A DNA stretch of 26,536 nucleotides, from positions 1 to 26,536 of IMG/VR virus record IMGVR_UViG_3300009481_002821. The stretch is one strand, 5' to 3'. Below the pieces are notes generated by a model. The model was not told the DNA's origin, ran no database searches, and saw only the letters and a list, made by a program, of their open reading frames with translations. A program made the position numbers and the translations under genes. Shown one piece after another: positions 19 to 26,536 of this stretch. Origin of the DNA: a virus. Each line of letters starts with the position of its first letter. Position 1 is the stretch's first letter.

Positions 19-69
19 TAGTGTCAACTAGTCAGATAAAGATTAGAAAATTTTTTAGAGGTGTTTTAT

Positions 70-507
70 ATGTTGGCACGAAGAAATAACCCGGTTAATT
101 CGTTTTTTGGGAGTGGGTTCCCAGATAGTTTGTTTAGTAGTTTATTGAGTTACCCAACATTTTCTGATGAGTCCAGAAGCTACGTGATTCCTGTAGACGT
201 TGTGTCTAATAATGATACTGTTACTGTAACAGCATCGTTACCGGGAGTATCGGTAGACAATGTGGATGTTTCAGTAGAGAACGGTATTCTTACAATAAAT
301 AACAAAACTGATGTTTCTTCCAATAAGGAAGAAGGAAATTATGTTCTTAGAGAACGAGTTCAAGGATTATCTAGTCGTTCTATTAGGCTTCCAAAGGATG
401 CCGATGTAGATAGTGCGGAAGTATCACTTAAAGATGGAATACTAACCATTCAATTTAAAAATGGTCATCCACGGCAAGTGAAATCACTTCCAATTTCAAC
501 AAGCTAG
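70..507 (+). CDS. hsp20: Small heat shock protein, Hsp20/alpha-crystallin family
   Basis: ATP-independent chaperone that binds unfolding proteins. The 145-residue product has a short variable N-terminus rich in Ser, Phe and Leu, then an alpha-crystallin domain (about residues 38-135). Key marks are the SLPGVSVDNVDVSVENGILT strand region and the family signature near the end (SLKDGILTIQF, equivalent to A-x-x-x-n-GVL), followed by a short tail with LPIS resembling the I-x-I anchor. An in-frame GTG exists at 61, but the ribosome binding site AGAGGTG (57-63) sits 6 bases ahead of the ATG at 70 and covers that GTG, so 70 is chosen. Hsp20 genes are known in T4-like cyanophages and other marine phages, where a role in virion assembly or host stress has been proposed. 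The gene is followed directly by a terminator, so it is its own unit or the end of an upstream one. Confidence 0.93.
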   Translation: MLARRNNPVNSFFGSGFPDSLFSSLLSYPTFSDESRSYVIPVDVVSNNDTVTVTASLPGVSVDNVDVSVENGILTINNKTDVSSNKEEGNYVLRERVQGLSSRSIRLPKDADVDSAEVSLKDGILTIQFKNGHPRQVKSLPISTS

Positions 508-5988: not shown

Positions 5989-6409
5989 GTTAAAACTCCC
6001 CGAAAAATATACAGCTAAAGATGTATATAATTATTGGGGTGAATGTTATTCTAAGTATGCTTCTACTGATTATAATCCAAGGGGATTTATTGGTCATGAA
6101 CTTCAGCAGTTAAAAGAAGCACTTGCTTTATATGATATTTATGCTGTACTATTAGCGGTAGAATCTGGTGTATTAAATGGTGAATCTTCCTTGGTATATT
6201 TCCTCTCTAAGTTAGATGAATATATACCATCGACTGAATATCCGAATTTACACTATTGGGTTAGAAAACAGGGTGACTCTGACCATAAAGCATTGTTGTT
6301 GAGTTTAACACTATTGGAGTCTAAGTGGATTCCTGACCCAATGGATAATCGTAAAAAACAAGAGTTAGCGGAGTCCTTAAATTCTTGGGTGGAGAAAATA
6401 ACTATATGA
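5960..6409 (+). CDS. Hypothetical protein
   Basis: The product (149 residues from the ATG) begins with a basic segment, then a largely helical body with WGECYSKYASTDYNPRGFIGHE and an amphipathic, hydrophobic middle (LYDIYAVLLAVESGVL). I do not recognise a family. A GTG at 5939 would add 7 residues; neither start has a strong ribosome binding site. It overlaps dcd by about 30 bases, and its stop overlaps the next start as ATGA, so it sits in a tightly coupled run. Confidence 0.6.
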   Translation: MPPKTVRKIKLKLPEKYTAKDVYNYWGECYSKYASTDYNPRGFIGHELQQLKEALALYDIYAVLLAVESGVLNGESSLVYFLSKLDEYIPSTEYPNLHYWVRKQGDSDHKALLLSLTLLESKWIPDPMDNRKKQELAESLNSWVEKITI

Positions 6410-6762
6410 ATGGTTCTAAACAGGGTCATCACAAAATAATTAAGCCTATTGAGTTAGTTAGTCCGTGGCTTCCGAAAGGTATTGATGCTATTACGTTATG
6501 GCCTTTCATCTTCTATCGTAAGGGTTATGCTGATAATATGCCTTTGAGAAGCCATGAGTATTATCATTGGTATCAAGCTAAAAAATTTGGGGTATTTCCT
6601 TGGTATCTTACGTATGTATTTTTAATGGTTGTTTATTTAGGTAGGTCAAAAGTATCTCATCCATTTGAAAAAATGGCATACGCCGAGCAAGCAGAAGTTG
6701 AACAGTTAATAAAATCACATAAAAAAACAAGCGATTATTTAGAGAAAAAATATTTAGTTTAA
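6406..6762 (+). CDS. HExxH zincin-like small membrane-associated protein
   Basis: The product (118 residues) carries H50-E51-Y-Y-H54, the zinc-binding motif of zincin metalloproteases. A hydrophobic segment follows (about 63-79), then FEKMAYAEQAE with E88 and E94 as candidate third ligands. The arrangement resembles uncharacterised HExxH-Q proteins in which the motif precedes a short membrane-like segment. Activity is inferred from motif only. The ATG overlaps the previous TGA stop. A peptidase could act on host envelope or regulatory proteins, but the neighbours are replication genes and give no direct clue. Confidence 0.68.
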   Translation: MNGSKQGHHKIIKPIELVSPWLPKGIDAITLWPFIFYRKGYADNMPLRSHEYYHWYQAKKFGVFPWYLTYVFLMVVYLGRSKVSHPFEKMAYAEQAEVEQLIKSHKKTSDYLEKKYLV

Positions 6763-6777
6763 TATGAGAGTAGTAAA

Positions 6778-8001
6778 GTGGAAAGTTACGGATTTATTGA
6801 GTCTGGAATAATATTTGGAATAGATAGTTTAACAACATTAAAGCAATTAAAATACACCCCTAAAGATTTTTCAGTGCATTCTGAAGCATTGGATTTTTTA
6901 CTTGATTACTATGATGGATATTCTGAGTTTCCATCATCAGGACTTTTGTCAGAAAAGTTTCCCGATTTAGATTCAACTGCGATTGATTCATCGTTAGACT
7001 ATTGTTTAAATGCTTTTCGTAAGCAAGTCATTTATCGTAATGTAGTTGATGTAATTAATACCCATAAAAATCGTTTAACTGATGACCCTGAGTCGGTTAT
7101 TGGTTCATATTTAGAAGGTCTTGAGAAAATAACACTTCAGCATGATGATGATTTACTTCTTTATGATAGTGGTACAGAAGACCGTTTAGAGGATTATAGG
7201 CATAAGAAATCTCAACGCTCTAGTAAATTTGGTATTATAGGTATACCGACCCCATTTAAAAGCATTAATAATTCTGGTGTTGGTATGCAACCCGGAGAGG
7301 TTTATTCGGTTTTTGCTAGACCCTCTGTTGGTAAAACATGGATGTGCTGTAAGTTTGCTACAACTGCTGCTATGTGTGGATATAAAACCTTATTTGTATC
7401 AGCAGAAATGCCAGTAAAAGAAATCATGATGCGATTAGACGTACTTACTGCCAATGCTATGAAGTATAAATTTACCCATGATAGTTTACGAACTGGTCAG
7501 GGTTTAGATGAAGAATCTTATAAGGACTTTTTATCTAAGGTTAATCAAGAGAACATGTTTGTTTGTGATTCTATAGACCAATCTACTGTTAGTATAGCTG
7601 GTATTTCTAGTTTGGTTCGTAAACATAAGCCTGATTTGATTGTTTTAGATAACATAGACCTTGTAGGTGTAAACACATCTGGTAATCAAGCCCTATGGGA
7701 AAAGATGCACTCATTATTTTATGGTATGAAGAATATATGTACTGTTAATAAATGTGCTTGTATTATTTCTACACAAGCCAATAAGGGTGGATTTGATGTC
7801 TTTGCTCCACCTCAAGCTCATCATGTGGCTTTTGGTGATGCTTTAATTCGTGCTTCAGATGTCGCTTTCTCTATGTTTTGTGTAGAAGATAATATAGGGA
7901 AGAGGATGCTCCAATTTCAAAAATTCCGTAACAGTAGTTTAACTAATGATACTGTAACTTTAGATTGGAATGTAAATATAGGTTTGGTAAAAGAGGAATA
8001 A
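6778..8001 (+). CDS. DnaB-like replicative helicase
   Basis: The 407-residue product is a RecA-fold, DnaB-like hexameric helicase. The smaller N-terminal part (about 1-120) is helical. The ATPase core begins around 150, with Walker A ARPSVGKT (180-187), VSAEMP (208-212), Walker B LIVLD (287-291) and IISTQ with the sensor Gln (329-333). The start is GTG with a weak upstream signal. A nearby ATG at 6764 is in another frame and closes after 15 codons. It is followed by the primase and SSB-like genes, so the 5'-3' helicase, primase and SSB-like protein form one replisome block. Confidence 0.93.
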   Translation: MESYGFIESGIIFGIDSLTTLKQLKYTPKDFSVHSEALDFLLDYYDGYSEFPSSGLLSEKFPDLDSTAIDSSLDYCLNAFRKQVIYRNVVDVINTHKNRLTDDPESVIGSYLEGLEKITLQHDDDLLLYDSGTEDRLEDYRHKKSQRSSKFGIIGIPTPFKSINNSGVGMQPGEVYSVFARPSVGKTWMCCKFATTAAMCGYKTLFVSAEMPVKEIMMRLDVLTANAMKYKFTHDSLRTGQGLDEESYKDFLSKVNQENMFVCDSIDQSTVSIAGISSLVRKHKPDLIVLDNIDLVGVNTSGNQALWEKMHSLFYGMKNICTVNKCACIISTQANKGGFDVFAPPQAHHVAFGDALIRASDVAFSMFCVEDNIGKRMLQFQKFRNSSLTNDTVTLDWNVNIGLVKEE

Positions 8002-16059: not shown

Positions 16060-16644
16060 TTGAAAATTGCTTTAGACATAGATAGGGTTCTAGCTGATTT
16101 TGATGCTAGATTAGTTTATTGTTTGAATAAACTATATGGTCTTAGTTTTACTCCTTCAGATATTGCAATGGATAATTTTAAGGCTTTGTTTTGTTTAGAT
16201 AAAGACGAAGAAAAGATTCTTTTTGAAGAAGTTTTTTCTAGTATAGATAATTTTCCTGCTATTGATGGAGCCGTTGAAGGTTGTGAACTTTTAGTGGATT
16301 CTGGTGTAGAGCTATTTTTAGTTACTGCTAGAATCAAAACTGATATTACCTATGCGTGGTTAGATAAAAATTTTCCTACAATCAAGTTCCCTGTTTACTT
16401 TAAGCAAGATGTAGAGAACATACCTTTTGCAGATTATTTTTTGGATGATGCACCTTATAAAATTGCTAAGTATTATGGTAAAATCACTAAACAATGTTTT
16501 TTGATGGATACTTATCAAAATAAAGACTGTATTAATTTAGGTAATAAATATGTACGTGTTAATGGTTGGTTTGACTTTCTAAATAGAATTCAAAAAGATA
16601 ACCCTAATTTTAATTTTAGGAGAAAAGAATATGCTAGGAAATGA
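16060..16644 (+). CDS. HAD-family hydrolase, 5'-nucleotidase-like
   Basis: The product (194 residues, TTG start) carries haloacid dehalogenase motifs: motif I DIDRVLADFD (D6 nucleophile, D8 acid), motif II VTAR (T89) and the late acidic pair in ADYFLDDAPYK (D129/D130). The overall layout matches phage 5'(3')-deoxyribonucleotidases, which remove phosphate from deoxynucleoside monophosphates. An alternative is a nucleic-acid end phosphatase. TTG is supported by AGGG just upstream and by the start falling two bases after the resolvase stop. Its end overlaps the protease gene by 14 bases. Confidence 0.8.
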   Translation: MKIALDIDRVLADFDARLVYCLNKLYGLSFTPSDIAMDNFKALFCLDKDEEKILFEEVFSSIDNFPAIDGAVEGCELLVDSGVELFLVTARIKTDITYAWLDKNFPTIKFPVYFKQDVENIPFADYFLDDAPYKIAKYYGKITKQCFLMDTYQNKDCINLGNKYVRVNGWFDFLNRIQKDNPNFNFRRKEYARK

Positions 16645-17479
16645 AGAGCTTCATAAACAGATTTTATATCCTGTTACAAGGGTACGTGCTGGTTCATCTG
16701 GTGGTTCGGGAGTTGTTGTTTATTCAGAACCTGACCCCAAAAATCCGAATGAGTATATAAACATAGTTTTTACTTGCCAGCATGTAGTAGATGCCTCTAT
16801 TAAAATGAGAGATGAATTTGACAGTGTTCTCAAGCGTAATAGGAAAACAGATTATTTTGAAGAAGTAGTTGTTGAAATTTTTCAATATCTAGGTAGTAGA
16901 TTAGTATCCTCTAACGCCACTACTGGTGATATAATTGCTTATGATAAGTATCATGATTTAGCCGCAATTAAATTACATAATCCAAATAAAATGGACTATG
17001 TGGCTACAATAATTCCCGAAGATGAAATTAAAAATATTCGTTTATTTGATAATGTGGTAACGTCTGGTTGTAGTTTGTTACATGACCCATTTGGGAATAG
17101 TGGAACCATTACATCTTTACGTGAAATTATTGAACAGAAAAACTATATAATGGCTAACGCTCCTGCCATATTTGGTAATTCTGGTGGTGGATTATTCCAC
17201 GGAGATACTGGTAATTTGTTGGGGTTAACGTCACGAGTTACGGTTAATCAGATGGGATTTGGTTTAGATATTCAAGCATGGATGAATTTTAGTACTCATC
17301 CAGACCGTTTATATGAGTTTATAGATAATCAGGAACTACATTTCTTGGTAGATGATTCAGATGATTATCATAAGGCAATGACTCGTAGAACAGATAGACG
17401 CAAGGAAGCCATTAGGGAGTTCTTTGTGAGTGACGAGTCTGATGAACAAAAAGATTTTGGAGTAGTGGATAATGGCTAA
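16631..17479 (+). CDS. Trypsin-like serine protease
   Basis: The product (282 residues) has a chymotrypsin-fold catalytic triad in order: H51 (FTCQHVVD), D109 (KYHDLAAIKL) and S184 in GNSGGGLF. RVRAGSSGGSGVVVYS at residues 17-32 fits the N-terminal strands, and there is no signal peptide, so it should act in the cytoplasm or the assembling virion. No PDZ domain is visible; the last 50 residues are acidic and basic low complexity. AGGAG lies 8 bases before the ATG. Its position just before the terminase genes allows a capsid-maturation role, but host-protein cleavage is equally possible. Confidence 0.87.
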   Translation: MLGNEELHKQILYPVTRVRAGSSGGSGVVVYSEPDPKNPNEYINIVFTCQHVVDASIKMRDEFDSVLKRNRKTDYFEEVVVEIFQYLGSRLVSSNATTGDIIAYDKYHDLAAIKLHNPNKMDYVATIIPEDEIKNIRLFDNVVTSGCSLLHDPFGNSGTITSLREIIEQKNYIMANAPAIFGNSGGGLFHGDTGNLLGLTSRVTVNQMGFGLDIQAWMNFSTHPDRLYEFIDNQELHFLVDDSDDYHKAMTRRTDRRKEAIREFFVSDESDEQKDFGVVDNG

Positions 17480-18442: not shown

Positions 18443-20107
18443 ATGGCTAGAACTTATACGAAAAAAACTGAGAAATTAGTTACCTTTGAAGATGGTTTAC
18501 AGGAAGTTATAGACGCTCTCGATAATCGTCATTCAGTTAACACTGGTACATTTTGGGAATTCACAAGAGACATTTGGAGTCAAAGTTACGAACATCAAAG
18601 TTATTTTAATGCGTGGCATGTAGGTGTCATATGTGAAGATGTTCAAAGAGCTTTAGAAGAAAATAAACATTATGTAGGTGTACTTCCAAGAGGTCACATG
18701 AAATCGACTATTTTGGGGTACGCTTTTTGTGTTTGGCGTATTTTAAATTCTCCTTCTGACATGTCTATACTGTATTTATCTTATAGTGATGGAATGTCTC
18801 GATATCATATATCTGAGATGAATCGTCATATTAGAGGTAATCCTCAGTTAATGGAATGGATGACTGACCGTTCTCCTAATGCCGATTATTCTTTTAGATA
18901 CATGGTTAATGGTTCACGTTCTGAAGTTATGCATGGTGGTCTATTTTCATTTAAACGTGGTATGCATTTGAATGGTGCGTTGATTTGTGATGACCTAATG
19001 CGTGACCCGGAAAACCCATTGAATATTTCTAGTCTCTCTAAAATTGAGGAGTGGTTTTATACTGAAACTTTATATATTCCTAATAGGAATGTTCCAGTAA
19101 TTGTATTGGGTACTCCTATGTTACCGGGAGATTTACTTTTTAAGTTGCAAGGAGATGAGCGTTTTATTTCACGAGTCTTGCCAGCTTTAGACCCTATTCC
19201 CGGTAGAAAAGTATTAATGCCAGAATTATATACAGAAGCAGAATTATTACATCAGAAGCAAATTCGACCTAAATCTTTTGCTTCTGAAATGATGCTGACT
19301 CCGTATTTGAGTACTGAAAGTTATTTGAATGATGAAGATATTGGAAGTTGCGAAAATGATAAATTGGAATCGTTAGACCCATATACGAAACATGAGATAG
19401 ATGCTGATTTTGTTTTTGCTGGATTTGACGTAGGTAAAAAACGTCACCCATCTCATTTAGCTGTATTTAAAATTAAAGATAAAATTATTACTGAGATACA
19501 TCAACAATTTATGGATAATTGGGATTATACAGAGCAGATTGCACATTTGAATTTAATAGCTGAAAATTTTGATTTAGATAGAGCGTATGTTGATAATTCT
19601 AGGGGTGAGTTGGAAGAACGAGGTTTAGCACCTATATGGAATCCACTGACATTTACTCTTAAACAAAAACGAAGAATGGCTCAAGTTTTTGAAGAATATG
19701 TAAATTCTGGTAGATTACAAATGATATCAGATGAACGACAACGCTCACAGATAACGTGTGTGAACAATGAGTTGAAAGCACCCGAAACACCACTAGGTCA
19801 TGGAGATAGTTTCTTTTCAGTAGCGATGGCGTTATTAGCTTGTTATGAACAGGAAGTTTCTTCCACAACCTTGATTGGGGATATGAATGATTTTACTCCA
19901 AAAGCCACCGATAAAACTATTGAACCCAAGTTCGATGGGGAGTATAATGATGAGACTATAAAAGAGTCCTGTCCCGAATGCGGAAGCACAAATGCGTGGA
20001 TACCAGTGAATTCGTTATGTTTAGCCTGTTATGCTGGCTCTCTTTCGTTACCTACTGGTCGTGATACAGACCAATCCGACAAAGAAATGACGAATTTCCC
20101 CTTTTAG
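18443..20107 (+). CDS. terL: Terminase large subunit with C-terminal zinc ribbon
   Basis: The 554-residue packaging motor and nuclease has an ATPase with P-loop PRGHMKST (82-89, a variant of the RGHGKS-type Walker A), Walker B GALICDD (178-184) and motif III VLGTP (221-225). The RNase H-like nuclease has D329 (AGFDVGKK), D384 (AYVDNSRGE) and D455 (GHGDSFFS). An added C-terminal element has C510-x2-C513-x12-C526-x2-C529, a zinc ribbon beyond the usual nuclease domain. It follows terS after 24 bases with an AGAGAG-like site. The next gene, a ribonucleotide reductase, interrupts the usual terminase-portal order. Confidence 0.94.
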   Translation: MARTYTKKTEKLVTFEDGLQEVIDALDNRHSVNTGTFWEFTRDIWSQSYEHQSYFNAWHVGVICEDVQRALEENKHYVGVLPRGHMKSTILGYAFCVWRILNSPSDMSILYLSYSDGMSRYHISEMNRHIRGNPQLMEWMTDRSPNADYSFRYMVNGSRSEVMHGGLFSFKRGMHLNGALICDDLMRDPENPLNISSLSKIEEWFYTETLYIPNRNVPVIVLGTPMLPGDLLFKLQGDERFISRVLPALDPIPGRKVLMPELYTEAELLHQKQIRPKSFASEMMLTPYLSTESYLNDEDIGSCENDKLESLDPYTKHEIDADFVFAGFDVGKKRHPSHLAVFKIKDKIITEIHQQFMDNWDYTEQIAHLNLIAENFDLDRAYVDNSRGELEERGLAPIWNPLTFTLKQKRRMAQVFEEYVNSGRLQMISDERQRSQITCVNNELKAPETPLGHGDSFFSVAMALLACYEQEVSSTTLIGDMNDFTPKATDKTIEPKFDGEYNDETIKESCPECGSTNAWIPVNSLCLACYAGSLSLPTGRDTDQSDKEMTNFPF

Positions 20108-22997: not shown

Positions 22998-24971
22998 ATG
23001 AAAATTACGGAAATTTTACCCGAATTACCGGGAGTTTTGCAATATCAGCAGAAGTTGACTGATTTATCAAATATTGTTGATTTGATGAAGTCTTCTTCTG
23101 ATGGAAGTCCAGAAAAATATCGTGTTCCCTCTCTAGGTCTAGACCATGTAGTAAATCAATGGGTTAGACAACAGATGGCTTATCGAATGAATCTTGTTCA
23201 AGATTTGTTCACCATTGCAATGACTGTAGAAGAAATACGTGCGCCAATTAATCATATTATTGGTGAGGTATTTCGCAGGGGTATTCAGTGGAAGCCTAAG
23301 TTTGCTGCAAAATGTGAAGCTTGCCAAGTAGAGTTTCAAGATTATTTACAGGTTTGTTCTACATGTAGGGGTGAACTTAGGGAGCCTGATTTTACTCAAA
23401 GAACTAATCTTGAAAAATTTAAGGCTGATTCCAATATCTTTGACCAATCTCTTGAAGAAGTTTTAAGACAGTTTTGGTTTGATGTAAACTCTATTGATAT
23501 TGGTTGGTTGTACATATCTAAAGAATATATTGAAGATGGCCCATCAGGGGTTCGTTCTAAACCACTTGAAATACGTAGAATACATCCATCATTAATTGAA
23601 TATGATTTAGATACTAATGGACTTCCTAAAAATTCTCATTGGCTTTGTCAGATTCATAGACTGGATGTGCATACTGAATCTGGTGACTGCCCTGATTGTG
23701 GTAGAACATTAGTTCCAGCTATGTATAAGATGTATCGTTATGGTGGTTCAGCTAATTCAACACAATCTAATATGGCAGTTGAAGGTAAGAATTTAACTTA
23801 TCTTCTAGATTCTGAAGTTATTGCTTGTAGAAAATTCTATACTGATGAATTGTATGGTTGGAGTCCAATAATGACCATACTAGACAAGGCATTAACCTTG
23901 GTTGGTATGGATAAGAATTTGTATAGATATTTTTGGGAACGTAATATGCCAGCATCTATGATAATGGTATTTACTGATGACCCCGAATCAATGAGACGTG
24001 AAAGAGAGCATATAGCATCACGGATGAGGCAAGACCCTAACTATATACCAATGGTAGCTGTTTCCACTCGCCAGAGTCGTGGTAGAGTTGAAATGGTACG
24101 CTTATTCCATACGTTACAGGAGATGGACTATCTTCCTGTTCGTAATGAAATACGAGAAAGAATTTCTAGTCTATGGGGTGTAACTCCTGCATGGCAGGGC
24201 GCACCAGAGGCATTTGGTGGATTAAGTTCTAATACACAGCAATTAGCAGTTATGTCTCGTGTTGTTGAACATGACCAACGGTTGTTGGAAGAAAAAGTGT
24301 TCCCTAATATTTTGGAAGCTTTTGGTATTACTGATTGGGTATTTGAGCTTCCGTCACCAGAAGAGAAAGCTGAAGCAACTAAAATTTCATTTGCTCAACA
24401 AAGGGTTAGTGTTGCTAATATGCTTTTCCAGATGGGATTTGATGTTAAATCTCGTTCATCTGGAGTTAGTGTTGATGATATTGATTTCTTAGTTTCGGGA
24501 GAAGCTAAACCACCCGACCAAATGGGTGGAATGGGTGGAATGATGGGTGGAATGATGGGCGGTGGTGAAATGCCTCCAGAAATGGGTGGTGGTCAAGAAC
24601 AAGGTGGTGAGGGAGATATTCCTTCTACACCAACGCTAGATTCTCTTGGATTACAATTAATGAGAAAATCTACTGGAACGTGGCATGAACAAATTTTAAA
24701 TAAAGGGTATTTTGCTCCGATAATTAAACAGGTAAGTGAAGATGGGAAAACAGTCATTTTTAATAGTGCAGATGATGATTACGAAGCTACATTTATAAAC
24801 GGTAGTTTAATGCATATTGAAAAATATTTACATACACATGATGGTCATCCACCACATGATGAAAATATTAAACATAATTTATCAGCAAATCGTAAGAGTA
24901 AGGTAGAAACATCCATGTATGCCCCCGAAGAAGGTGAGGATATAGATGACAACGAACTCTACGATATCTAA
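22998..24971 (+). CDS. Portal protein with embedded zinc-ribbon elements
   Basis: The 657-residue protein forms the portal ring through which DNA enters the head. Recognisable portal features are ITVEEIRAPINHIIGEVFRRG-like early helices (about 75-95), the LGWSP-type wing segment DELYGWSPIMTILDKALTL (283-301), and EHDQRLLEEKVFPNIL (424-439). Two paired-Cys elements are inserted: C106-x2-C109-x10-C120-x2-C123 and C217-x2-H220...C231-x2-C234. A Met/Gly low-complexity stretch (507-540) precedes a C-terminal extension rich in His and Asp (HTHDGHPPHDE, about 614-624). AAGG at 22987-22990 supports the start, and the end overlaps the next gene by 26 bases. Confidence 0.87.
   Translation: MKITEILPELPGVLQYQQKLTDLSNIVDLMKSSSDGSPEKYRVPSLGLDHVVNQWVRQQMAYRMNLVQDLFTIAMTVEEIRAPINHIIGEVFRRGIQWKPKFAAKCEACQVEFQDYLQVCSTCRGELREPDFTQRTNLEKFKADSNIFDQSLEEVLRQFWFDVNSIDIGWLYISKEYIEDGPSGVRSKPLEIRRIHPSLIEYDLDTNGLPKNSHWLCQIHRLDVHTESGDCPDCGRTLVPAMYKMYRYGGSANSTQSNMAVEGKNLTYLLDSEVIACRKFYTDELYGWSPIMTILDKALTLVGMDKNLYRYFWERNMPASMIMVFTDDPESMRREREHIASRMRQDPNYIPMVAVSTRQSRGRVEMVRLFHTLQEMDYLPVRNEIRERISSLWGVTPAWQGAPEAFGGLSSNTQQLAVMSRVVEHDQRLLEEKVFPNILEAFGITDWVFELPSPEEKAEATKISFAQQRVSVANMLFQMGFDVKSRSSGVSVDDIDFLVSGEAKPPDQMGGMGGMMGGMMGGGEMPPEMGGGQEQGGEGDIPSTPTLDSLGLQLMRKSTGTWHEQILNKGYFAPIIKQVSEDGKTVIFNSADDDYEATFINGSLMHIEKYLHTHDGHPPHDENIKHNLSANRKSKVETSMYAPEEGEDIDDNELYDI
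24522..24593 (+). repeat. Met/Gly-coding repeats in the portal gene
   Basis: Repeated ATGGGTGGA units encode a Met-Gly-rich flexible segment between the portal core and its C-terminal extension. Slippage of short units is the likely origin. Confidence 0.7.
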
Positions 24972-25206
24972 CGGCAGTGACACTTCTTTGCTACCTTTTG
25001 AAGCGAAACAATGGATAGAAAACACTTTTCACAGGTCATTATTTAATGTTGTTTGGGAAAATGATGAACCTGTATCGTTAATTGTAACTGTAAATTATTA
25101 TTCCACATTTTATATGAGTAAAGGTACAACTTTGGTTGAAATTCAACGAGAGTTGCAAGAGTGGCAGTCTAAGGGTTATCCAGAACCAGAGAGTAAAGTT
25201 GAGTAG
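24946..25206 (+). CDS. Small hypothetical protein after the portal
   Basis: The product (86 residues) starts inside the end of the portal gene (26-base overlap). It has a beta-rich middle (NVVWENDEPVSLIVTVNYYSTFYM) and a helical C-terminus (TTLVEIQRELQEWQSKGYP). The function is unknown. It lies between the portal and the DUF192-HExxH protein and may be a head or scaffold accessory protein. Confidence 0.6.
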   Translation: MTTNSTISNGSDTSLLPFEAKQWIENTFHRSLFNVVWENDEPVSLIVTVNYYSTFYMSKGTTLVEIQRELQEWQSKGYPEPESKVE

Positions 25207-25233: not shown

Positions 25234-26536
25234 ATGCCACAACTGCACAATATTAGGATTAACCAAACTAATTATAGAGTTGAAGTAGCGAACACTCCTC
25301 ATCTCCATAGTCTTGGTTTGTCTTTTAGAACGCATCTTTCATCTAATCATGGGATGCTTTTTACTTTTCCTGATGAAATGAATCGTATTTTCCATATGAG
25401 GAATATGAAAATTCCTCTGGATATTATTTTCATTGGGGCTGATAAGCGAGTTAAATGGATTATTGAAAATGCTCAACCTAATAATGAGCGTTTAGTTTCT
25501 TTGCGACCCTCTAAATATGTCCTTGAAGTTAATGCTGGTGATGTAAAGAAAAACAATATTCAGCTTCACTCCCTTATGGATACTTTAAATAACCCCTTAA
25601 TAAAATCCTCAGACCAATGGCTTCAAAAACAAGATGGTGGAGACGGTGGTTTTTCTGGTACAGCCCATACATCAGAAGGCACTAATACTTTTACTAGAAC
25701 ATTTGGTTCAAGTAAGGACAATAAAAAGACTATAGGTAAAAAGAATTGGGCGAAAGTTTTAACTTCCACTCCAGAGAATGTTTCTTTATCCTTGCTTAAT
25801 GAATGGTTAGGAGCAGAAGAAATTGATTCCTCAGATGATTCAGAAGATGATTATGTAAGCAAAAGTTTTGATGATTTAGCTGTTTGGTTACTTAAAGCTG
25901 TCACTGCTGAAGCTATTGCTTCCGCTAAAGGGAAAGGTCTTGTACCGAAAACTGGTACTTGGGAAAAACCGGGTAGGTGGGTAAGACCAGAAGATGCTGA
26001 TGTTCCTGTAGATGAGGATGAAGCATCTCTGGGTACTCAAAATGTTTATACGGCTAATGAGATTAGTGATAAATTACTACCTAATGTTTCTTATAAAGGA
26101 TTTGGGAAAAATAAAGAGGCACTTAATAGGGTCACTGGAATTTTCTTAGAGGCATTAGATGGTATTGGTAAACCTAACCCATTTGTTAATGGAGAAAGAA
26201 CTATACCTAAATGGCAAATTGATAAATTAGATATTGGAAAGATAATCCTTAAATATACCATCACTAAAGCTGGTGATGCTTTGGAGTATGGGGATGAGGT
26301 TGCTGGTGCAGTCAGTTTAGATAATGGTGACATGAGTATCAATAATTGTGGGGGTTTATTAGCAAAACTTGATTATTATGAACGCTGGTCAAAATCAATA
26401 TCCGCATCAGATGCTAAAGAAGATTTTATGGGTACTATTATTCATGAATTAGGTCATAAGGTTTTGGAATCTAATCATGAGGTTCGACCTTGGATTTGGG
26501 CAAAGGTCGAACAAGAATATGATAATGCTATGAGAA
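25234..26536 (+). CDS. DUF192 domain joined to an HExxH metallopeptidase-like region (3' end outside window)
   Basis: An open frame runs from ATG 25234 off the end of the window (at least 434 residues, incomplete). Residues about 8-112 match DUF192: GLSFRTHLSSNHGMLFTFPDE, MRNMKIPLDIIFIGADKRV and KYVLEVNAGD follow the family order. A Gly/Ser/Thr-rich and acidic region (about 135-220) follows, then VPKTGTWEKPGRWVRPEDA and a further domain with H404-E405-L-G-H408 (TIIHELGHKVLE), the zincin zinc-binding motif. DUF192 proteins are usually about 120-170 residues and stand alone, so this is a fusion or composite protein. Directly after the portal, such a protein may be a minor head or ejected virion protein, by inference only. 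The third zinc ligand and the true end lie beyond the window. Confidence 0.8.
   Translation, partial: MPQLHNIRINQTNYRVEVANTPHLHSLGLSFRTHLSSNHGMLFTFPDEMNRIFHMRNMKIPLDIIFIGADKRVKWIIENAQPNNERLVSLRPSKYVLEVNAGDVKKNNIQLHSLMDTLNNPLIKSSDQWLQKQDGGDGGFSGTAHTSEGTNTFTRTFGSSKDNKKTIGKKNWAKVLTSTPENVSLSLLNEWLGAEEIDSSDDSEDDYVSKSFDDLAVWLLKAVTAEAIASAKGKGLVPKTGTWEKPGRWVRPEDADVPVDEDEASLGTQNVYTANEISDKLLPNVSYKGFGKNKEALNRVTGIFLEALDGIGKPNPFVNGERTIPKWQIDKLDIGKIILKYTITKAGDALEYGDEVAGAVSLDNGDMSINNCGGLLAKLDYYERWSKSISASDAKEDFMGTIIHELGHKVLESNHEVRPWIWAKVEQEYDNAMR

What the first reader, a model, noticed from the sequence alone, without database searches (positions are those of the whole stretch)
25234..26536. DUF192 domain joined to an HExxH peptidase-like region after the portal
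DUF192 is normally a small stand-alone domain of unclear function. Here it begins a protein of more than 430 residues with an acidic linker and an HELGH motif near the window end. The slot after the portal often holds MuF-like or other minor head proteins with variable, sometimes toxic, C-terminal domains. An enzyme carried in the virion and injected into the host is one possibility.
Basis: partly seen in the sequence, partly recalled or inferred. Interest (0 to 1): 0.6.

Follow-up and report, generated by a model that had tools for sequence, protein, structure and literature searches.

The report
Tag-punctuated viral enzyme arsenal gene
The gene after this virus's portal starts a huge chain of unrelated enzymes, probably packed in the virus head and injected into the host, with the parts separated by a small repeated module that had not been noticed before.

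Summary
One uninterrupted ORF starts at 25234 with a clear DUF192 domain (Pfam E=4e-26) and reaches an HELGH motif; the window simply ends inside it. An overlapping contig extends it to 596 aa and supplies the downstream Tyr and candidate third zinc ligand (Y463, E470; Y-x6-E). The peptidase model matches Pro-Pro endopeptidase PPEP-1 and the anthrax lethal-factor fold (Z about 10), and HExxH + Y-x6-E is kept in all six units compared. In sibling contigs the gene is a 3,463-aa chain: DUF192, tRNA nucleotidyltransferase, two zincins, SNF2 helicase. More giant ORFs follow (NUDIX, topoisomerase IB, likely ADP-ribosyltransferases), up to the head protease. This matches the "polyvalent proteins" of Iyer et al. 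2017. New here is a 25-36 aa tag (consensus GLVPQSGDWxxPxRWVRPED; predicted helix plus beta-hairpin). I found about 40 copies in seven viral contig groups, between unrelated domains and at ORF starts, with saturated synonymous sites but conserved protein. The window has one copy (25891-25995), between DUF192 and the peptidase. I think the tag marks separable cargo units for head loading and/or proteolytic release. Packaging, injection and cleavage are inferred, not shown; the host is unknown.

The parts
25234..26535 (+). N-terminal 434 codons of a post-portal polyvalent-type protein; 3' open at the contig end (continues to at least 596 aa in L002)
25276..25563 (+). DUF192 domain (PF02643), aa 15-110
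   Evidence: Pfam E=4.4e-26; 3pjy/3m7a phmmer hits; dN 0.10 against dS 0.80 versus L009
25618..25728 (+). Gly-rich conserved segment KQDGGDGGFSGTAHTSEGTNTFTRTFG...KK (aa 129-165), nearly identical in siblings; a similar GGG..GT..TS...FTPTYGG segment follows the portal in L018
25774..25809 (+). leader-like VSLSLLNEWLGA region (about aa 181-192); the same motif (M-TLTLLNEWLxKQ) opens several polyvalent ORFs in G001
25813..25854 (+). acidic linker AEEIDSSDDSEDDY (aa 194-207)
   Evidence: sequence
25891..25995 (+). recurring tag module LKAVTAEAIASAKGKGLVPKTGTWEKPGRWVRPED (aa 220-254), the only copy in the window
   Evidence: HMM i-E 2e-20; 37-copy alignment; predicted helix + beta-hairpin
26035..26535 (+). 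zincin metallopeptidase domain, N-terminal part (aa 268-434; completed in L002 to about aa 507)
   Evidence: PPEP-1/lethal-factor fold Z about 10; Pfam M90 1e-4 and ATLF 0.012
26443..26457 (+). HELGH active-site motif (aa 404-408); partners Y463 and E470 lie beyond the window, in L002 about 7387-7410
24946..25206 (+). 86-aa ORF between portal and target, conserved in siblings, no convincing family
22998..24971 (+). portal protein (phrog_18178 E=8e-39); distant relatives are portals of haloarchaeal Druskaviridae and of a Methanomassiliicoccales virus

Best explanation
This is the start of a polyvalent (multi-effector) protein of a tailed virus, made with the head proteins and most likely loaded into the prohead and delivered with the DNA. 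It is built of interchangeable cassettes (in this virus DUF192, then a lethal-factor/PPEP-type zincin; in siblings also tRNA nucleotidyltransferase, a second zincin, SNF2 helicase, likely ADP-ribosyltransferases, NUDIX, topoisomerase IB, GNAT). Cassettes are separated by one standard helix-plus-hairpin tag that also stands at the start of separate ORFs. My mechanism: each tag is the N-terminal docking handle of the unit behind it. It tethers the chain in the prohead, and the chain is cut in the flanking acidic or flexible linkers by its own zincin and/or the head maturation protease, so that individually tagged enzymes are ejected. Shown: architecture, zincin signature and fold, cassette gain/loss at tags, protein-level conservation of tags, position between portal and head protease/major head protein. 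Inferred: packaging, cutting, injection, the docking role of the tag. DUF192 is a true recurring cassette but its biochemical role stays open.
For: DUF192 plus zincin in one frame in several contigs. Zincin: HExxH + Y-x6-E in 6 of 6 units; model matches PPEP-1 (Z 10.6, 155 residues, 3.5 A) and lethal factor (Z 10.0). Sibling chain: DUF192, tag, PolyA_pol/RNA-binding/HD (4.7e-22; NCBIfam CCA-adding 8e-55), tag, zincin-1, tag, zincin-2, tag, SNF2 (1.5e-8); L009 and G001 overlap by 821 identical bases. Following ORFs: NUDIX 1.6e-14, Topoisom_I 2.5e-11. Cassette logic: the window's zincin matches sibling zincin-2 (40%) better than zincin-1 (26%), so two cassettes are missing or extra exactly between tags. 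Tags: about 40 copies, mean pS 0.62-0.77 against pN 0.18-0.34 and no near-identical pairs. Of 87 loci read in six frames, only those holding this gene carry it. DUF192 recurs as an internal cassette followed by a tag in G008 and G009. In G010 a tagged 1857-aa protein ends in a head maturation protease (5.5e-13) and is followed by the major head protein (3.9e-12). The cultured haloarchaeal virus HVTV-2 has portal, HEMGH protein, MuF, zeta toxin/ART, prohead protease, MCP in the same order. Iyer et al. 2017 (PMC5512222) define the class.
Against: No virion proteomics and no cultured member with this tag. All contigs are metagenomic, and the full chain rests on one 821-base overlap of two contigs. 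The whole-protein structure model has a thin alignment (mean pLDDT 53; the DUF192 part is poorly modelled although its family is clear). The tag could be a plain structural spacer. If it is a loading signal, many copies per chain are needed only if the chain is cut, which is not shown.
Confidence: 0.68

Rival explanations
1. The zincin is only a maturation protease: it processes head proteins or this chain in the infected cell, and nothing is injected as an effector.
For: Position next to portal and head protease. Iyer et al. propose autoprocessing for such zincins. The chain is modular with exposed acidic linkers.
Against: Relatives already encode an S78-type head maturation protease. The other beads (tRNA nucleotidyltransferase, SNF2, NUDIX, TopoIB, ART-like) make little sense as head-assembly factors.
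Confidence: 0.15
2. The tag is a passive spacer or recombination junction: short repeats let cassettes be swapped by homologous recombination and have no role in the protein.
For: Cassettes differ between siblings exactly between tags.
Against: Copies are saturated at synonymous sites with none near-identical in DNA, yet keep G-L-P-G-W-P-R-W. A DNA junction would keep nucleotides. A fairly confident small fold is predicted. Tags also sit near the very start of ORFs.
Confidence: 0.2
3. It is a two-domain non-virion enzyme acting in the infected cell, for example in protein quality control (the virus also encodes an Hsp20 and a trypsin-like peptidase).
For: Hsp20 and Trypsin_2 in the same contig. 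DUF192 is common in free-living cells (control genomes).
Against: Late-gene position, polyvalent architecture and tags shared with ORFs beside the head genes.
Confidence: 0.07

Closest known systems
Polyvalent proteins of phages and conjugative elements (Iyer et al. 2017, PMC5512222)
   Same: Several unrelated enzymatic domains in one chain, zincin as hub, SNF2, ART and GNAT partners, terminase-portal virus, beside virion genes.
   Different: A standard small tag punctuates the chains and is shared between ORFs; 'linker', 'targeting sequence' and 'packaging signal' have no occurrences in that paper's main text. DUF192 is not mentioned there. [quoted passage not shown] Its named Pfam zincin family (MPTase-PolyVal) is not among the hits.
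PPEP-1/Zmp1 and anthrax lethal factor metallopeptidases (ATLF-type zincins)
   Same: Fold (Z about 10), HExxH, Tyr and Glu seven residues apart.
   Different: 10-16% identity; embedded in a viral chain; substrate unknown.
Druskaviridae (HVTV-2, HCTV-5) post-portal genes
   Same: Related portal (25% identity); HExxH protein, ART and zeta toxin between portal and head protease; own repeated 26-36 aa motif (RVYVDSPDEAPEGVQVQQG..GGLWY) in gp115 and twice in gp116.
   Different: Different repeat sequence, no DUF192 seen, a MuF gene present.
T4 internal proteins with capsid targeting sequence; phage P1 DarA/DdrB
   Same: Works-like comparison: several head-loaded injected proteins share a short N-terminal sorting element and/or are trimmed by proteases.
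   Different: T4's signal is about 10 aa and one per protein (from memory); here the element is longer, predicted to fold, and repeated inside one chain. No membership claimed.

Membership tests
Polyvalent proteins (Iyer et al. 2017) | Two or more domains of disparate biochemical activity in one polypeptide | tested here: met
   Window/L002: DUF192 + zincin; L009/G001: DUF192 + tRNA NTase + 2 zincins + SNF2
Polyvalent proteins (Iyer et al. 2017) | Zincin MPTase with HExxH and a downstream Glu | tested here: met
   Invariant in 6 of 6 units; fold match
Polyvalent proteins (Iyer et al. 2017) | Portal-terminase virus, gene next to virion genes | tested here: met
   Terminase 18443-20107, portal 22998-24971; head protease and MCP downstream in relatives
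Polyvalent proteins (Iyer et al. 2017) | Carried in the virion and delivered with DNA | not testable with these tools
   Needs virion proteomics or infection assay
MPTase-PolyVal (Pfam) | Match to the Pfam model | tested here: inconclusive
   Not listed at E<=10; best are M90 (1e-4) and ATLF (0.012), both below their cut-offs
ATLF/M34-type zincin (lethal factor, PPEP) | HExxH, Tyr-x6-Glu, ATLF fold | tested here: met
   Motif; Z 10.6/10.0. Sequence score is below the Pfam cut-off, so membership is by fold and motif only
ATLF/M34-type zincin (lethal factor, PPEP) | Proteolytic activity and substrate preference (Pro-Pro for PPEP) | not testable with these tools
   Needs biochemistry
MuF (SPP1 gp7-like) minor head protein | MuF domain | tested here: not met
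   No Phage_Mu_F match in the 596 aa known (E<=10); the rest of the window virus's gene is unseen
DUF192 (PF02643) | Match above gathering cut-off | tested here: met
   91.3 bits against 27

The most novel reading that the evidence does not exclude
A clade of uncultivated tailed viruses (related by portal to archaeal Druskaviridae) uses a standard folded tag as a universal cargo adaptor. Any enzyme put behind the tag, in cis or in trans, is loaded into the head, cut free by the co-packaged lethal-factor-type zincin or head protease, and injected as a tagged unit: a plug-in effector system for virions.
Probability: 0.35. Interest if true: 0.85.

Novelty: new variant of a known kind. Interest (0 to 1): 0.63.

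Why it matters
Polyvalent proteins were predicted in 2017, but how many unrelated enzymes are sorted into one head and separated afterwards is open. A single tag repeated about 40 times, between unrelated domains and at ORF starts, gives a concrete test object: delete it, graft it onto a harmless reporter, look for the cuts around it. It also gives DUF192, an old orphan domain, a recurring virion-side context (this clade; cyanophage head-region proteins; a gut phage), and extends large polyvalent proteins toward virus groups (archaeal-type portals) where they were thought scarce.

Tried and rejected
Direct searches for relatives of the window protein found only its own overlapping contig in viral contigs and none in genome contigs; the real route was the portal and then the tag. 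A phage database search for the peptidase half gave nothing. Tag searches in INPHARED phages gave only chance hits or none. The one genome-contig hit (L129, Clostridia MAG) is a 9-residue coincidence in a 77-aa stretch between stops. Foldseek of the tag model found nothing significant in PDB or BFVD. Regex scan of HVTV-2 and more distant portal relatives for the tag: none. MuF: not found. PHROGs: no family for the window protein. The MT835876 hit (L003) is a bacterial-looking stretch with a lipoprotein-like DUF192, not a phage relative. Host: the family A polymerase resembles those of very many phages at about 30% and the terminase gives only weak Bacteroides-phage hits, so the host stays unknown. 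DUF192 literature: 10 papers, none on phage function by title and abstract.

Full report
What is there. The window is a complete 26,536-base IMG/VR record. Its last ORF, 25234-26535 on the + strand, is open at the contig end. It begins with DUF192 (PF02643, aa 15-110, E=4.4e-26), confirmed by similarity to two solved DUF192 proteins (3pjy E 2e-17; 3m7a E 1e-14). A Gly-rich segment, an acidic linker, a conserved tag and the start of a peptidase domain with HELGH at aa 404-408 follow. The gene before it is an 86-aa ORF, and before that the portal (phrog_18178, E 8e-39).

Beyond the window. A second contig, IMGVR_UViG_3300011013_001734 (L002/L008), overlaps with 4 differences in 1302 bases and adds 162 codons, still open. 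These contain FTTKYSSRNPNEFWSECYRAYF. HELGH at 404, Tyr 463 and Glu 470 give the Y-x6-E spacing which, from general knowledge, lethal factor and PPEP-1 use for the catalytic tyrosine and the zinc-binding glutamate. Six zincin units from the related contigs all keep HExxH and Y-x6-E (alignment A7). Sequence profiles reach Pfam M90 (1e-4) and ATLF (0.012) only below their cut-offs, and the best PDB sequence is the lethal factor C-terminal domain at E 0.005. The AlphaFold model of the 596 residues is thin in alignment (mean pLDDT 53), but its residues 271-507 align to PPEP-1 (Z 10.6, 155 residues, 3.5 A) and to lethal factor (Z 10.0). So this is a zincin of the lethal-factor/PPEP fold with an intact signature; activity and substrate are unknown.

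Siblings show what the gene really is. Portal-guided search gave L009, L010 and L012 with the same gene (85% identical portals, N-terminal 200 residues 80-83% identical). L009 runs 1267 aa without a stop: DUF192, then a complete tRNA nucleotidyltransferase (PolyA_pol 4.7e-22, RNA-binding, HD; NCBIfam CCA-adding 8e-55), then a zincin. Its end overlaps contig IMGVR_UViG_3300025305_001987 (G001) by 821 identical bases. The joined frame is 3,463 aa (3801 - 821 + 7412 bases) and continues with a second zincin, a PHROG family of unknown function and an SNF2 helicase. Further ORFs follow in G001 (403, 325, 1654, 1185 and 3060 aa), with a third zincin, NUDIX (1.6e-14) and topoisomerase IB (2.5e-11). 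ADP-ribosyltransferase-like units are supported weakly in relatives (DRAT 2.9e-4 in G002; ART-PolyVal 4.6e-5 in G010). Then come small head genes and a head maturation protease (phrog_23555, 1e-15).

The tag. Between the domains stands a recurring module, in the siblings (K)AVSxESIAEAKRRGLVPQSGDWxxPxRWVRPED. An HMM finds it in window/L002 (1 copy), L009 (3), G001 (8), G002 (6), and, through a collection scan, in G008 (3), G009 (6), G010 (14) and G011 (2). None of the other portal-related loci first read in six frames has it at E<=1. Copies lie between Pfam domains and overlap none of them in the architectures mapped, and stand near the N-terminus of several ORFs. The clearest case is the 813-aa ORF of G010: tag, zincin, tag, likely ART, tag, GNAT. 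Within a lineage, copies are near saturation at synonymous sites (mean pS 0.62-0.77) while pN is 0.18-0.34 and no pair has pS under 0.2. The protein, not the DNA, is therefore conserved. With 37 copies as alignment, AlphaFold gives a helix followed by a beta-hairpin, with pLDDT about 75-88 outside the first ten residues; no significant fold match was found. It is absent from the phage collection at tblastn sensitivity and from 84,980 species genomes at the scan's sensitivity.

Cassettes. The window's zincin is the counterpart of the siblings' second zincin (40% against 26% identity). So the window virus lacks, or the siblings gained, exactly the tRNA nucleotidyltransferase and first zincin cassettes, with the boundaries at tags. 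DUF192 is also a cassette: in G008 and G009 (portals 55-58% identical) it sits inside 1429- and 2528-aa proteins after a tRNA nucleotidyltransferase and directly before a tag.

Where it works. The block lies after the portal and before the head protease. In G010 a tagged 1857-aa protein itself ends in a head maturation protease domain (5.5e-13; Pfam S78 3e-4) and is followed by the major head protein (3.9e-12). The nearest cultured portals belong to Druskaviridae (25% identity). There the order is portal, a 1048-aa protein with HEMGH, MuF, zeta toxin/ADP-ribosyltransferase, prohead protease, MCP, and a different 26-36 aa motif recurs in gp115 and twice in gp116. Liu et al. (PMC8651126) place Druskaviridae portals and MCPs among marine archaeal viruses. 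That makes an archaeal host possible for the window virus, but the family A polymerase does not support it specifically.

Comparison with the known. Iyer et al. 2017 (PMC5512222) defined polyvalent proteins: disparate domains in one chain, zincin as hub, terminase-portal phages, beside virion genes, probably packaged, zincin probably separating the units. The case here meets every feature that could be tested. It differs in the standard tag, in DUF192, in the CCA-type nucleotidyltransferase and in the virus group. I therefore file it as a new variant of a known kind.

Mechanism, with steps marked. Shown by sequence: the architecture, zincin signature, tag conservation, cassette turnover and position. 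Inferred: loading into the prohead (from position and class), cutting between units (from zincin, head protease, linkers, and the need for one tag per unit), ejection, and the tag's docking role. Probabilities: polyvalent, virion-carried protein about 0.68; tag with an active sorting or processing role about 0.6; the full plug-in adaptor model about 0.35.

Limits. All tag-bearing members are metagenomic contigs. The five contigs that carry the gene's N-terminus (window, L002, L009, L010, L012) break off inside it, which fits a variable, repeat-rich gene but leaves the window virus's own C-terminal part unseen.

Noticed in passing
L018:10051-15845 (IMGVR_UViG_3300020198_000024): After a related portal, a row of roughly 300-aa genes share the N-terminal leader MKLTKM[FY]PNW[VF][RK]SLKKE ahead of more variable sequence, then an 1173-aa ORF with nucleotidyltransferase and NUDIX domains: a second, different shared-leader system in the same genomic slot.
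   Followed up: partly
L136:11623-16018 (HVTV-2 gp115, gp116): Motif RVYVDSPDEAPEGVQVQQG..GGLWY occurs once in gp115 and twice in gp116 (E to 1e-9), and WVSDPTEQAPNRWT occurs twice in gp115; a repeated-motif analogue in a cultured virus.
   Followed up: partly
L094:9646-12789 (HVTV-2 gp113): Annotated hypothetical; carries HEMGH in a zincin-like setting directly after the portal.
   Followed up: partly
L006:4083-6080 (Synechococcus phage SynMITS9220M01_097): DUF192 (6e-27) in the middle of a 665-aa modular protein just before the terminase gene; DUF192 matches also in S-SM2 and Bellamy.
   Followed up: partly
L005:4995-5561 (gut phage MT835470): Small DUF192 protein beside large probable virion proteins; its tail has a motif resembling one in the neighbouring 568-aa protein.
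   Followed up: no
L132:11600-17170 (G010): One 1857-aa ORF joins tag, topoisomerase IB, NUDIX, DNA methylase and S78 head protease, next to the major head protein.
   Followed up: partly
L104:3-7409 and L119:530-3397: Cys-rich stretches of type CSQCDDDCACVTDLDCECPHDCICPD recur inside polyvalent chains of two lineages.
   Followed up: no
window 6385-6762: 125-aa hydrophobic ORF with HEYYH (another HExxH), no Pfam family.
   Followed up: no
window 16631-17479: Trypsin-like peptidase (PF13365, 5e-11) in the replication/packaging region.
   Followed up: no
window 61-507: Hsp20 small heat-shock protein (6.5e-15) encoded by the virus.
   Followed up: no
window, L002, L009, L010, L012 contig ends: All five contigs that carry the N-terminal part of this gene stop inside it, suggesting strain variation there defeats assembly.
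   Followed up: partly
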